Assembly (NCBI RefSeq): GCF_026914185.1
Contig: NC_070559.1
Span: forward strand, 8,601,501 to 8,665,500
DNA length: 64,000 nucleotides
Direction of reading: 5' to 3'
Source of the DNA: Puccinia triticina
Lineage: Eukaryota > Basidiomycota > Pucciniomycetes > Pucciniales > Pucciniaceae
Position numbers and translations under genes: made by a program. Below the pieces are notes generated by a model. The model was not told the DNA's origin. It did not search any database and saw only the letters and a program-made list of their open reading frames with translations. Of this stretch, positions 26,485 to 34,290 are shown one piece after another; positions within the stretch are counted from its first letter, which is position 1; each line of letters opens with the position of its first letter.

Positions 26485-28920
26485 ATGCCTCCTCACCTTA
26501 GAAATGGCAGAGACCTCTCAGCAGAACAGCGCCTCCGCTACCGCCTCAGTCCAGCCGCCGAGGAAAGGCTTCGAAGAGCTAGAGTCAGCATTGCCGCCGC
26601 TCCAAGAGGATTTCCTCAAGTTCCCGGAGGAGGAGCCGCTTCCCCCAGACACAGGGATCCCTCCGGCGCTATACCAGGCGAGAGAGACATCAATAGCTCT
26701 AGCCTCGAACAGGTCCACGCCGGTACCGCGCCCAGTAGACAGGGAACAAATGATCCCTACGGCGAAGTATCCTCAGAAGGATCAACCGCCCTCCCAGCCT
26801 ACCAACCCCGAGGGTATGAGGCCGAATGCCTCCCCCAGTTTAGCCCTCCTTCCGCCCATTCAGAACCCACGACGGGAAGAGTCTTCCGGCCCGATGGATC
26901 TGATCCCAGAAGAAATGGAGCTGACAGGCCTCATCAACCTCTTCAACGATCAATTCGACATGTTTGTCCGAGCGAGAGAGGCGCAGAACACGGCCTCGAT
27001 GAAGAGACTCCTCTCCCAAGCTTCGATGACGCAAGAAATGATTATAGAGCTGGTTGGGAGAGCAGACGCCATCCGTCTATGCCAAGAATGGATCCCCAAC
27101 GAGGAGCTCCATCAATTGAATCAATCTCTAGCGCAACAGAACCCGGCAGATCAAACAATCCGCCACCATTCGCAGCTAGCCGTAGCGCCACACGCCAACT
27201 ATCAACCAATGATAGCCACGCCGACTCCGGAGCCTACGGGCTTACAGTACCGAGTACCAACGCAGGAGTTCCAGGGTCCTACCCCTTCCAACCGTCAGGA
27301 ACTTCCACAACCGCGTCCAGAAGGTCAGATTTACCACGGCCCTCAAATGCCGCAGCAACCACCGCCGCCGCCGCCGCCGCAAGCGCTCCAAGTGAGGCCA
27401 ATACCAGCTTCTATACCGCGAGAGGTGGTTCAATTGTTCCGCCCCAGCCCTCATTATCAACCTGGCGGGGTCAATCCACCCCATTATCCTCACACGCAGC
27501 AAGGATACGCAGACCACAACCCCCCTCATCCTCAAGACAATTGGAGAGGATCAGGGAGGAACTGGAGACGCCCCCAGGACGACACTCAGAGAGTACTAGA
27601 GATAGGAGAATACCTGATGAGAGCCACACGAGGAGTGAGGAGAATCTATGGACGCGGGAGAGCCAGAGGGAGAGGCCCTTACTAGATGAATCTTTACCCA
27701 AAAGTTCCTTAAGTAGTGATTCACCACTAGGCCTCAGTTTAGATATTGATAATCTCTCTGATCCTTCAAATAGAGAATTTTTTCTCAATAACCTTAACTC
27801 TGAAATGTCTAGAAATGGTCCCTTGTTCCTAGAAGAAAAATTACAAGTCTTGTTCTCTAAATTTCTCTCTGAATTATCTGGTACTGTTGAAACCATTCCT
27901 GGTACTCTTCTTGAATCTTGTGTCAGCAATTTTAAAGATGTCCTGAATCATTCCATTCTTGATCTATTTAAAAATGAATTCATTCCCTTTTTGCTTGATC
28001 AAATCCTGAACAACATAGGAGAAAGTGCCAGAGAGAAATCCACAGTGAATAACAATATGTTAGAACAACTGAAGAAACACATAGATGATAAGTTTGAGAC
28101 AGTTCAAGATTTGATTCTGGTAAATGAATCACAATGTCATTCTAACATGGATACAATTGGCCAAAATCTGAAAGATTTTGAAGAGAAAGTGAGCAACAAT
28201 CTTACTTCCATTGATAATCAGATCAATGACCTTCATGCCAATGAACACAACAGGTTTGAACAATCTAAGAGAAGATTCAGTGACATATCTTCTGTAGTAA
28301 ACACCGTGAGCTCAAAGCTGGATTCCGTGTTAATACCAGATGACAGAGACCAACCCCCTCATCTCTTGTACAATAATCCCTTCCAGAATGTCCACCATGA
28401 GCAACAACAGGAACACAGACCAACTCCTCCTGTTCCTACTCCTGAACCACAGAGACCACCAAGAGATCACTTTCCTAAGCCTGCTAGCAATACTCCTGAT
28501 ACTAAGACCCAAGAGGAATTCCCCTACATTGATCATGGAGCTATAGACTTTGAAATGAGGAAAGAACTGTGGAAAGGTATCCCCAAAAATGGAGACTGGG
28601 AGAAATTCTCTGGAGAATTGCCTTACAATCATGAACTTTGGATTAAGAATACTGATATCCTGGTTAGAGACTACTTGATGCTGGATAACATGATAATCAG
28701 CAGATTAACAATCTTGTTAACTGACACTGCAAGGAATTGGTACCTAGGCATCAGAGATGAGTATGGAAACAAATCTTGGGCTTGGTGGAAGAATGCCATC
28801 AGAAATAAGTTTGGCACTGAGAACTGGAAATGGAAATGCAACAAGAGTTTGAGAATGATCACTTTGCCTATGATGGGAGGAAAATCCATAAATGGTTTGG
28901 TAATCAGAGAGAAAGACTGA
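26485..28920 (+). CDS. gag: F Gag (811 aa)
   Basis: Starts at the first ATG of the element RNA after the LTR (A at -3). Residues 1-~395 (Ser/Pro/Arg-rich) overlap ORF1 in another frame. The rest is a typical gag: coiled-coil-like segment around residues 480-620, then a capsid domain (LTDTARNWYLGIRDEYGNKS) that breaks off. The frame ends 28920, while capsid similarity continues in the -1 frame as MQQEFENDHFAYDG at 28836 onward. It encodes the structural particle protein. Whether residues 1-395 are made in this frame or ORF1's frame is uncertain. Confidence 0.75.
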   Translation: MPPHLRNGRDLSAEQRLRYRLSPAAEERLRRARVSIAAAPRGFPQVPGGGAASPRHRDPSGAIPGERDINSSSLEQVHAGTAPSRQGTNDPYGEVSSEGSTALPAYQPRGYEAECLPQFSPPSAHSEPTTGRVFRPDGSDPRRNGADRPHQPLQRSIRHVCPSERGAEHGLDEETPLPSFDDARNDYRAGWESRRHPSMPRMDPQRGAPSIESISSATEPGRSNNPPPFAASRSATRQLSTNDSHADSGAYGLTVPSTNAGVPGSYPFQPSGTSTTASRRSDLPRPSNAAATTAAAAAASAPSEANTSFYTARGGSIVPPQPSLSTWRGQSTPLSSHAARIRRPQPPSSSRQLERIREELETPPGRHSESTRDRRIPDESHTRSEENLWTRESQRERPLLDESLPKSSLSSDSPLGLSLDIDNLSDPSNREFFLNNLNSEMSRNGPLFLEEKLQVLFSKFLSELSGTVETIPGTLLESCVSNFKDVLNHSILDLFKNEFIPFLLDQILNNIGESAREKSTVNNNMLEQLKKHIDDKFETVQDLILVNESQCHSNMDTIGQNLKDFEEKVSNNLTSIDNQINDLHANEHNRFEQSKRRFSDISSVVNTVSSKLDSVLIPDDRDQPPHLLYNNPFQNVHHEQQQEHRPTPPVPTPEPQRPPRDHFPKPASNTPDTKTQEEFPYIDHGAIDFEMRKELWKGIPKNGDWEKFSGELPYNHELWIKNTDILVRDYLMLDNMIISRLTILLTDTARNWYLGIRDEYGNKSWAWWKNAIRNKFGTENWKWKCNKSLRMITLPMMGGKSINGLVIREKD
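26504..27685 (+). CDS. F ORF1, overlapping frame inside gag (393 aa)
   Basis: ATG at 26504 (G at -3, G at +4) lies 19 nt after the gag ATG, in the +1 frame, and stays open to TAG at 27683-27685. The product has an acidic Pro-rich N-terminus, a probably helical core (LINLFNDQFDMFVRAREA, MIIELVGRADAIRLCQEW), a Pro/Gln stretch with eight consecutive prolines and an RG-rich basic end (RGRARGRGPY), suggesting RNA binding. No family recognised. The CpG-rich part of F ends at 27656, almost exactly where this ORF stops. Either a true overprinted protein, or the original gag N-terminus with gag's frame open beneath it. Confidence 0.6.
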   Translation: MAETSQQNSASATASVQPPRKGFEELESALPPLQEDFLKFPEEEPLPPDTGIPPALYQARETSIALASNRSTPVPRPVDREQMIPTAKYPQKDQPPSQPTNPEGMRPNASPSLALLPPIQNPRREESSGPMDLIPEEMELTGLINLFNDQFDMFVRAREAQNTASMKRLLSQASMTQEMIIELVGRADAIRLCQEWIPNEELHQLNQSLAQQNPADQTIRHHSQLAVAPHANYQPMIATPTPEPTGLQYRVPTQEFQGPTPSNRQELPQPRPEGQIYHGPQMPQQPPPPPPPQALQVRPIPASIPREVVQLFRPSPHYQPGGVNPPHYPHTQQGYADHNPPHPQDNWRGSGRNWRRPQDDTQRVLEIGEYLMRATRGVRRIYGRGRARGRGPY

Positions 28921-33275: not shown

Positions 33276-34290
33276 TGTCAGCCTTAGAGTCATCACAGCT
33301 GACCTAAAAGCTGCCTGTTCTACCTTTGTTACATATAAATTACTTTATATCTTTTTCATCTTAAGAGATAACCTTGTTTTGACTTCATATTCTGTTTCCT
33401 CATGCAATTTTAACCCTAGTTACAACTTATAAATTCCTTGTAACTATACTCCTTCCCTGAGTTACTGAGTTATGGCGCCCTTGCGCAGTTGTGACGTGTC
33501 AGCGCTACCAGGCGCGCCAAACCACATGTACATATGTAAATTACATAAGCAAACTGTGAAAATTTTCGTAGTCAGGATCCCCCTTGCCTGAGGCGGATCT
33601 ACAGACTTCAGCACACCAGAACCACCACCCAGATAACCCCAGGATCACCACCAAAGAGCCTACTCTACTCCCAGTATACCTACCGTCACAGGCGCCTAGG
33701 ATATTGACAGTAAGTAACCTCTTTCACTGAACCTTGATTATCTCAGAGGTACAACTCTGTGTCTTGCTTGATCTGCCTTTTCTTCTTGCTTTGCCTCCTC
33801 CTTGATCACAGGGCTGTCCCTCCAATTCTACAGGCCTTTGCCTCTATCTTGATCACAGGGCTGTCCCTTCAATTCTACAGGCCTTTGCCTCTATCTTGAT
33901 CACAGGGCTGTCCCTTCTTATCATCAGGCCTTTGCCTCAAAATCTAGGTTCAGGGCTGTCCCTCAGGTTTCCCATTAAGAACCTTGACTGTCCAGAGAGA
34001 AGTCTAAAAAACTGTGGCTGGATTAAACTTATCTAATCCAGATACCCTCCTGAGAGGAAGCTGTAGCACTTCTAGCACAGATTAGCAGCACTCTTCTGAA
34101 GAGTAGCATTGCCAGTGGACGTGCATTCCCACTAGAATAACCTAGTACTTCTCTTCTATCTTATCCTGCTTGGTTTCTTTCTCTCTCTTTCTCTTTTTCT
34201 CTTACAGTTGTATTTTCTTTATCCCAAGAAATCAAACTGTTGTCCCCCATTTCTTGTGTCCTGCTGTCACTATAGAGACTCAGGCTCACA
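33276..34290 (+). mobile_element. F 3' LTR (1015 bp)
   Basis: Same length and, by eye, same sequence as the 5' LTR, implying recent insertion. The polypurine tract GGTGGTAGGGAA abuts it. Confidence 0.93.

What the first reader, a model, noticed from the sequence alone, without database searches (positions are those of the whole stretch)
28328..33475. About 5.1 kb of chromovirus gag-pol without one CpG
Line-by-line reading finds no CG between 28327 and 33476, although C and G are each near 20% and about 200 would be expected. Arg is therefore encoded only by AGA/AGG, and no codon ends or spans CG. The LTRs look identical and the frame is open, so this is not decay after insertion: the family itself has evolved a CpG-free coding region. 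Plausible cause: avoidance of, or long exposure to, CpG methylation and deamination while coding was under selection. Neighbouring elements E, K and L are CpG-rich.
Basis: partly seen in the sequence, partly recalled or inferred. Interest (0 to 1): 0.9.

Follow-up and report, generated by a model that had tools for sequence, protein, structure and literature searches.

The report
Retrotransposon with CpG-free coding body
A young, high-copy jumping gene, probably in a rust fungus, has lost essentially every CG letter pair from its protein-coding body while keeping them in its front end, apparently because a mutation process aimed at CG pairs has run out of targets there.

Summary
Confirmed. No CG lies between 28326 and 33476 (about 214 expected); the CpG-poor zone starts at 27657. 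It belongs to a Ty3-type LTR element (identical LTRs 24709-25723, 33276-34290; TSD GGAAC). It is a family trait: 38 young copies hold 48 CpGs in 4.2 kb each against 6,623 expected; 7 older copies with shortened frames hold 0-5 each; three sister-family copies have o/e 0.11-0.16. It is not genome-wide: 33 of 33 sampled loci of other element families have o/e 0.63-1.17.
The loss is regional. The same element keeps CpG in the LTR core and in 25724-27656, in 5 of 5 copies, and those CpGs turn over no faster than GpC. Body CpGs are lost about 70 times faster than ordinary synonymous transitions and created 5-6 times less often. Decay in a control family and the CpGs left in sisters carry a TCG fingerprint, the RIP-like target published for Pucciniomycotina. 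Best reading: body-restricted CpG hypermutation run to exhaustion under protein constraint, perhaps aided by selection for target-free copies. Against pure deamination: NCG codons became NCT, not NCA. This copy's gag-pol frame is not open; chromovirus status is weak. Methylation was not measured.

The parts
24704..24708 (.). target-site duplication GGAAC, 5' copy
24709..25723 (+). 5' LTR, identical to the 3' LTR; CpG only in its core (24909-25127, 10 CpG) and at 25553
25724..26484 (+). leader, CpG-rich (39 CpG, o/e 1.30)
26485..27656 (+). CpG-normal first module (76 CpG, o/e 0.82), dual coding
26485..28920 (+). frame b: first ATG, runs into gag; in this copy closes at 28920
26504..27685 (+). 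frame a: overlapping ORF of 393 aa
27657..33475 (+). CpG-exhausted body: 2 CpG (28305, 28326) against 235 expected
28327..33475 (+). run with no CpG at all (214 expected)
28821..33239 (+). open frame with end of gag, zinc knuckle, RT, RNase H, integrase, weak chromodomain
33276..34290 (+). 3' LTR
34291..34295 (.). target-site duplication GGAAC, 3' copy

Best explanation
The element is a young, high-copy Ty3-type LTR retrotransposon (family F) of what is probably a rust fungus. Its gag-pol body has been driven to mutational exhaustion of CpG. A host process that turns CpG into TpG or CpA, preferring TCG on either strand (RIP-like, or deamination of methylated cytosine laid down by a DNMT1-type enzyme), acts on the body along the lineage through which the family replicates. 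Purifying selection on the proteins let synonymous and Arg CpGs drain away until 0.2-0.3% of CpG-capable third positions carry one. The LTR core, the leader and the dual-coding first module are largely spared, as if that promoter-proximal segment stays unmethylated or is otherwise protected. Shown here: family-wide absence, regional boundary, CpG turnover like GpC in the 5' part, fast CpG loss to both products in the body, TCG fingerprint in a control family and in sister families, a DNMT1-like gene. Inferred: that 5-methylcytosine is the intermediate, that the 5' part is unmethylated, that the host is a rust. A share of selection for target-free copies is likely but not separated.
For: 38 young copies: 48 CpG against 6,623 expected. 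Two-state ML fit at third codon positions: CpG loss 144-148 (CI 68-245) against ordinary 2.1; creation 0.33-0.37 (CI 0.16-0.61) against 1.8-2.0; the equilibrium implied equals the observed 0.2-0.3% (the intervals printed for the ordinary rates are grid artefacts). The body CpG at 30890 (TCGA) is CG in 12, CA in 2 and TG in 16 of 30 copies, with several independent losses inside one subfamily. 5' CpGs are conserved like GpC: 0.885 vs 0.879 and 0.805 vs 0.789 in two of three stretches, 0.582 vs 0.663 in the third. Sister locus: CpG-rich 5' zone, then CpG-poor body. CpGs left in three sister bodies: TCG 2 of 62 (p 2e-7), CGA 3 of 62 (p 2e-8). Control family K: CpG transitions at codon positions 1+2 are 2.67 vs 0.20 for other C/G on young tips, 1.24 vs 0.25 on older tips, 0.53 vs 0.19 inside the tree; TCG and CGA are preferred with odds ratios 3.6 and 3.8. 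DNMT1-like gene with a BAH domain. TpCpG RIP-like bias stated to be conserved in Pucciniomycotina (PMC5381629, passages).
Against: NCN codons end in T 53% and A 21% in pol against 28% and 29% in GTN, CTN and GGN: CpG-to-CpA deamination predicts NCA. At the 75 aligned CpGs of the closest CpG-bearing relative F has CT 23, TG 18, AG 10, CA 9. CpG creation is also suppressed 5-6-fold, which a pure loss process does not predict. 33 of 33 sampled loci of other families are CpG-normal, so the process must act on F and its sisters far more than on others; why is unknown, and a chromodomain is not the reason (5 of 5 pieces from chromodomain elements are normal). The 5' part is not wholly untouched: TCG there is 0.53 and CGA 0.69 of expectation, as in the window at large (0.60, 0.66). 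Loss events are few, and gene conversion could mimic some CG-to-TG losses (not those to CA). Published CpG bias in P. graminis TEs is weak, 10% of copies (PMC4352252).
Confidence: 0.6

Rival explanations
1. Selection, not mutation, removed the CpGs: copies whose body carries CpG are methylated and silenced (or their transcript is restricted), so only target-free copies replicate; the CpG-free body is an evolved immunity to CpG-directed silencing.
For: CpG-creating transitions are suppressed at third positions on inner branches (5 per 35.6 exposure units against 127 per 74.4 for other A/T) and on tips to older copies (5 of 941 against 69 of 2047 site-copies), and creation is 5-6 times reduced in the fit. 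Codon choice went to NCT, as free choice would allow. Horns et al. [quoted passage not shown] Young TEs are preferentially methylated in a stem rust (PMC8444563).
Against: Selection alone strong enough for the depletion predicts about 6-fold faster loss and about 60-fold slower creation; the fit gives about 70-fold and 5-6-fold (my arithmetic). CpG-bearing variants are shared between copies as often as other variants: 4 of 11 CpG columns against 87 of 229 polymorphic columns, a small sample. The TCG bias of the CpGs left in sisters looks mutational. The same transcript keeps about 115 CpGs in its 5' part.
Confidence: 0.22
2. Family F came recently by horizontal transfer from a host with extreme CpG depletion and kept that composition.
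For: F differs from 33 of 33 sampled loci of other families. No other species could be examined.
Against: Three sister copies in this genome are also depleted (0.11-0.16); F copies 7-10% diverged are present; CpG loss is seen among copies within this genome.
Confidence: 0.08
3. Low G+C, codon bias or chance alone gives the gap.
For: Body G+C is 41% against 51-60% in five neighbouring ORF spans.
Against: Codon-usage-preserving shuffles give at least 72 CpG in pol; 90 of 90 two-fold pyrimidine codons before G end in T against 36% elsewhere; nine of the 20 loci have 40-43% G+C and o/e 0.63-1.10.
Confidence: 0.02

Closest known systems
RIP-like TpCpG hypermutation of transposable elements in Pucciniomycotina (PMC5381629; abstract and passages read)
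   Same: C-to-T at TCG and its complement in repeats; seen here in family K decay and in the CpGs left in sister families.
   Different: There the proliferating elements kept their target sites and had few RIP mutations (35 TpCpG targets in the ancestral piece). Here an intact, proliferating family has almost none left in any NCG context, and only in its body. The authors raise variants that shed target sites as a possibility; the passages I read report none.
CG methylation and deamination-driven CpG loss in rust fungi (PMC8444563, PMC12774611, PMC12129025; passages read)
   Same: Rust TEs are CG-methylated; CpG depletion in A. psidii is ascribed to 5mC deamination, with insignificant RIP indices; a DNMT1-like gene is present here too.
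   Different: In A. psidii younger TEs have more CpG sites than older ones; F is young and has almost none in its body. The passages read do not describe a CpG-free intact family.
Ty3/gypsy LTR retrotransposons, chromovirus branch
   Same: LTRs, TSD, zinc knuckle, RT, RNase H, integrase in that order, weak C-terminal chromodomain.
   Different: The CpG map, the 393-codon dual-coding first module and its hypervariability; five chromodomain elements sampled are CpG-normal.
CpG islands and gene-body CpG depletion of vertebrates (recalled, no call)
   Same: CpG-normal promoter-proximal segment, CpG-depleted body.
   Different: About 70-fold CpG loss is more than the roughly 10-15-fold that I recall for vertebrates; here it is a transposon.

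Membership tests
Ty3/gypsy LTR retrotransposon | two LTRs and a short target-site duplication | tested here: met
   1015-bp LTRs identical, GGAAC on both sides
Ty3/gypsy LTR retrotransposon | RT, RNase H, then integrase in pol | tested here: met
   RVT_1, RT_RNaseH, Integrase_H2C2, rve in that order, all over cut-off
Ty3/gypsy LTR retrotransposon | aspartic protease upstream of RT | tested here: inconclusive
   RVP E 0.043, below cut-off
Chromovirus | chromodomain at the C-terminus of integrase | tested here: inconclusive
   PF00385 20.7 bits, E 4e-4, cut-off 25.1
Chromovirus | RT/integrase phylogeny within chromoviruses | not tested
RIP-like TpCpG hypermutation (Pucciniomycotina) | C-to-T preferred in TCG, G-to-A in CGA | tested here: met
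   family K decay and sister-family residue; F has too few CpGs for a test of its own
RIP-like TpCpG hypermutation (Pucciniomycotina) | acts on repeats, not on single-copy DNA | tested here: inconclusive
   single-copy relative L042 0.62, multicopy sisters 0.11-0.16, but 33 of 33 sampled loci of other families are normal
RIP-like TpCpG hypermutation (Pucciniomycotina) | a dedicated mutation pathway in the sexual cycle | not testable with these tools
   needs crosses
5mC deamination | loss to both TpG and CpA | tested here: inconclusive
   both products seen at 30890, but NCA codons are not enriched
5mC deamination | CpG of the body methylated | not testable with these tools
   no methylation data at hand

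The most novel reading that the evidence does not exclude
Family F is a retrotransposon lineage that has become immune to CpG-directed defence by shedding nearly every CpG target from its coding body, while keeping a CpG-rich promoter-proximal segment that has to stay unmethylated for expression; its success (129 scored hits at 90% identity or more, 43 of them with a frame of 2250 aa or more) follows from that immunity.
Probability: 0.3. Interest if true: 0.85.

Novelty: new variant of a known kind. Interest (0 to 1): 0.62.

Why it matters
It looks like a natural case of a defence running out of targets: an expanding element, many copies with a full-length frame, with almost no CpG in 5.8 kb of body, beside CpG-normal elements in the same genome. 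It makes a possibility raised in print testable (elements that shed RIP-like target sites; PMC5381629), offers a contrast inside one element between a CpG-keeping 5' part and an exhausted body, and gives a first rate estimate. It also warns that CpG methylation assays cannot see such bodies.

Tried and rejected
Chromodomain-directed insertion into methylated chromatin as a general cause: 5 of 5 pieces next to strong chromodomain matches have o/e 0.83-1.01; rejected.

Passive decay after insertion: rejected for this copy (identical LTRs) and for the family (38 young copies). My first reading, that older copies gain CpG at an almost normal rate and so only selection can explain the gap, was withdrawn: with about 70-fold loss the observed ratio of 0.7 at codon positions 1+2 (9 of 1603 against 37 of 4560) is about what a loss process gives over that time (my arithmetic).

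Deamination against free codon choice at codon boundaries: four-fold sites before G are T .62, A .31, G .07, about equally likely under both (my arithmetic); inconclusive.

Errors found and redone: one search aligned minus-strand loci without turning them (replaced); gag codon counts were in the wrong frame (replaced); one search stopped on a pattern (redone); one search named a wrong frame (redone).

Paper tools failed and worked. Precedent searches (listings only) showed no paper on a CpG-free intact retrotransposon family; the library lacks most subscription papers, so this is weak.
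Full report
What is there. That suggests a Puccinia-like rust (recalled; 18 chromosomes per haplotype are shown for P. striiformis in PMC12129025, passages), but no call names the host. Between the CpGs at 28326 and 33476 there is none, against about 214 expected. The element runs 24709-34290 with identical 1015-bp LTRs and a GGAAC duplication. Pol matches zinc knuckle, RT, RNase H and integrase models; a chromodomain and a protease match lie below the cut-offs.

More than chance. 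Permuting synonymous codons within pol leaves 72 or more CpG in 1000 trials. All 90 two-fold pyrimidine codons before G end in T, against 36% T otherwise. Arg is 75 AGR and 0 CGN.

Family-wide. A 220-aa RT query scored 150 of 1,924 candidates: 129 rows at 90-100% identity, one at 83% (L042), 20 at 70-71% (rows counted by eye). Thirty copies and eight more were read over 4.2 kb: 48 CpG in 38 copies against 6,623 expected, 14 of 38 with none, at most 4. Seven copies with shortened frames (316-839 aa) and 90-93% identity hold 0, 1, 5, 2, 3, 0 and 4 CpG in 1.7-2.6 kb.

Not genome-wide. Eight RT loci of other families have o/e 0.87-1.04, twenty more taken along the list 0.63-1.17, and five pieces next to strong chromodomain matches 0.83-1.01: 33 of 33. 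The sample leans to conserved elements, since the search ranks by score, and some loci may be of one family. Ten K copies, 88-97% identical in the aligned part, keep 0.75-1.08. Sister copies of F are depleted: L039 0.14, L040 0.16, L041 0.11. L042, the closest relative, has 0.62 and no second copy was listed.

Regional. In this element the LTR core has 10 CpG, the leader 39 (o/e 1.30), 26485-27656 has 76 (0.82) and 27657-33475 has 2 against 235. The map is shared by 5 of 5 copies read there, 130-138 CpG each in the 5' 4.5-4.7 kb. Among them 5' CpG is as conserved as GpC in two stretches (0.885 vs 0.879; 0.805 vs 0.789) and less in a third (0.582 vs 0.663). One sister locus shows the same layout over 8.3 kb; a second has a CpG-normal 5' zone followed by a poorer stretch, of which only about 1 kb was in the piece; the F element has no DNA match to these zones.

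How fast. Body CpG columns among 30 copies are few (11). At 30890 the copies have CG 12, CA 2, TG 16, with six inferred changes on the tree. A two-state ML fit at third codon positions gives CpG loss about 70 times ordinary loss (144-148, CI 68-245, against 2.1) and creation 5-6 times lower (0.33-0.37 against 1.8-2.0); for K the ratios are 5.0 and 1.3. A parsimony count gives 30 against 0.74 from three loss events only. The fit uses one FastTree tree, ignores recombination, and does not identify the root frequency.

Which process. In K, CpG transitions at codon positions 1+2 are 2.67 against 0.20 on young tips, 1.24 against 0.25 on older tips and 0.53 against 0.19 on inner branches: inserted copies mutate more than the active lineage. 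K decay prefers TCG: C-to-T in 31 of 133 TCG against 63 of 805 other NCG cells, G-to-A in 46 of 245 CGA against 39 of 684; cells are copies times sites, so the p-values are too small. In three sister bodies 2 of 62 remaining CpG are TCG and 3 of 62 CGA. TCG is mildly short in the whole window (0.60) and in F's 5' part (0.53), not in L001-L008 (0.93). The bias matches the TpCpG RIP-like pattern stated to be conserved in Pucciniomycotina (PMC5381629, passages). A DNMT1-like gene with a BAH domain is present. P. graminis has one Masc2-like Dnmt1 and weak CpG bias by PMC4352252, DNMT1 and DNMT5 and CG methylation of young TEs by PMC8444563; A. psidii CpG loss is ascribed to 5mC deamination, not RIP, by PMC12774611; passages read in each. 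F stands apart because its active lineage, not only its dead copies, is exhausted.

What does not fit. NCN codons end in T 53% and A 21% in pol and 54% and 21% in gag; other four-fold boxes in pol are 28% T and 29% A. Deamination predicts NCA. CpG creation is suppressed too. A mixture, hypermutability of about 13-fold as on K tips plus mild selection against CpG, would fit both rates by my arithmetic but was not fitted. Why this clade and not others is open.

The 5' module. Two ATGs 19 nt apart open two frames that overlap for 393-401 codons in 5 of 5 copies. Shuffling synonymous codons of frame a puts 10-12 stops on average into frame b (open in 0 of 2000 shuffles per copy); the reverse gives 3-5 stops (0.05-2.4% open). 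Substitutions pile up at third positions of frame a (0.31-0.33 against 0.15-0.18). This copy differs from four others by 13-34% in 26148-27497 but by 0-7% in 27648-28997. Dual coding may hold some CpGs in place, but the leader, outside these two frames, keeps them as well.

Verdict. It is best read as target exhaustion by CpG-directed, TCG-preferring mutation of the body of one retrotransposon clade, with a possible selective share.

Noticed in passing
26485-27685: Dual-coding region: two ORFs with ATGs 19 nt apart overlap for about 393 codons; both open in 5 of 5 copies read.
   Followed up: partly
26148-27497: Hypervariable module: this copy differs by 13-34% from four copies whose body start differs by 0-7%, so elements look like mosaics of 5' modules and a common body.
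   Followed up: partly
L009-L038, body: Private variants of young copies are rich in C>A and G>T (41 of 143 singletons), while variants shared by two or more copies are mostly transitions (78 of 87).
   Followed up: no
7401-8800, 14801-15600, 43801-44800, 62201-62800: Other CpG-poor stretches (o/e 0.03-0.23 in 600-bp windows), the last two TG-rich on the + strand; no DNA match to the F element or to the sister loci tested.
   Followed up: partly
L042 (G000:C5:2940500-2944500): Apparently single-copy relative of F (83% aa in RT), CpG o/e 0.62, longest open frame 578 aa.
   Followed up: partly
25175-25418 and 33742-33985: 47-bp tandem repeats inside the LTR, in its CpG-free part.
   Followed up: no
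60632-61570: Five overlapping open frames of 210-273 aa on both strands near a 40% G+C stretch with CpG o/e 1.55, possibly a repeat array.
   Followed up: no
34959-35187: Inverted repeat, 89-nt arms, 89% complementary, about 0.7 kb beyond the element.
   Followed up: no
L074 (G000:C3, near 6466826): DNMT1-like cytosine methyltransferase gene with BAH domain, apparently split by introns.
   Followed up: partly
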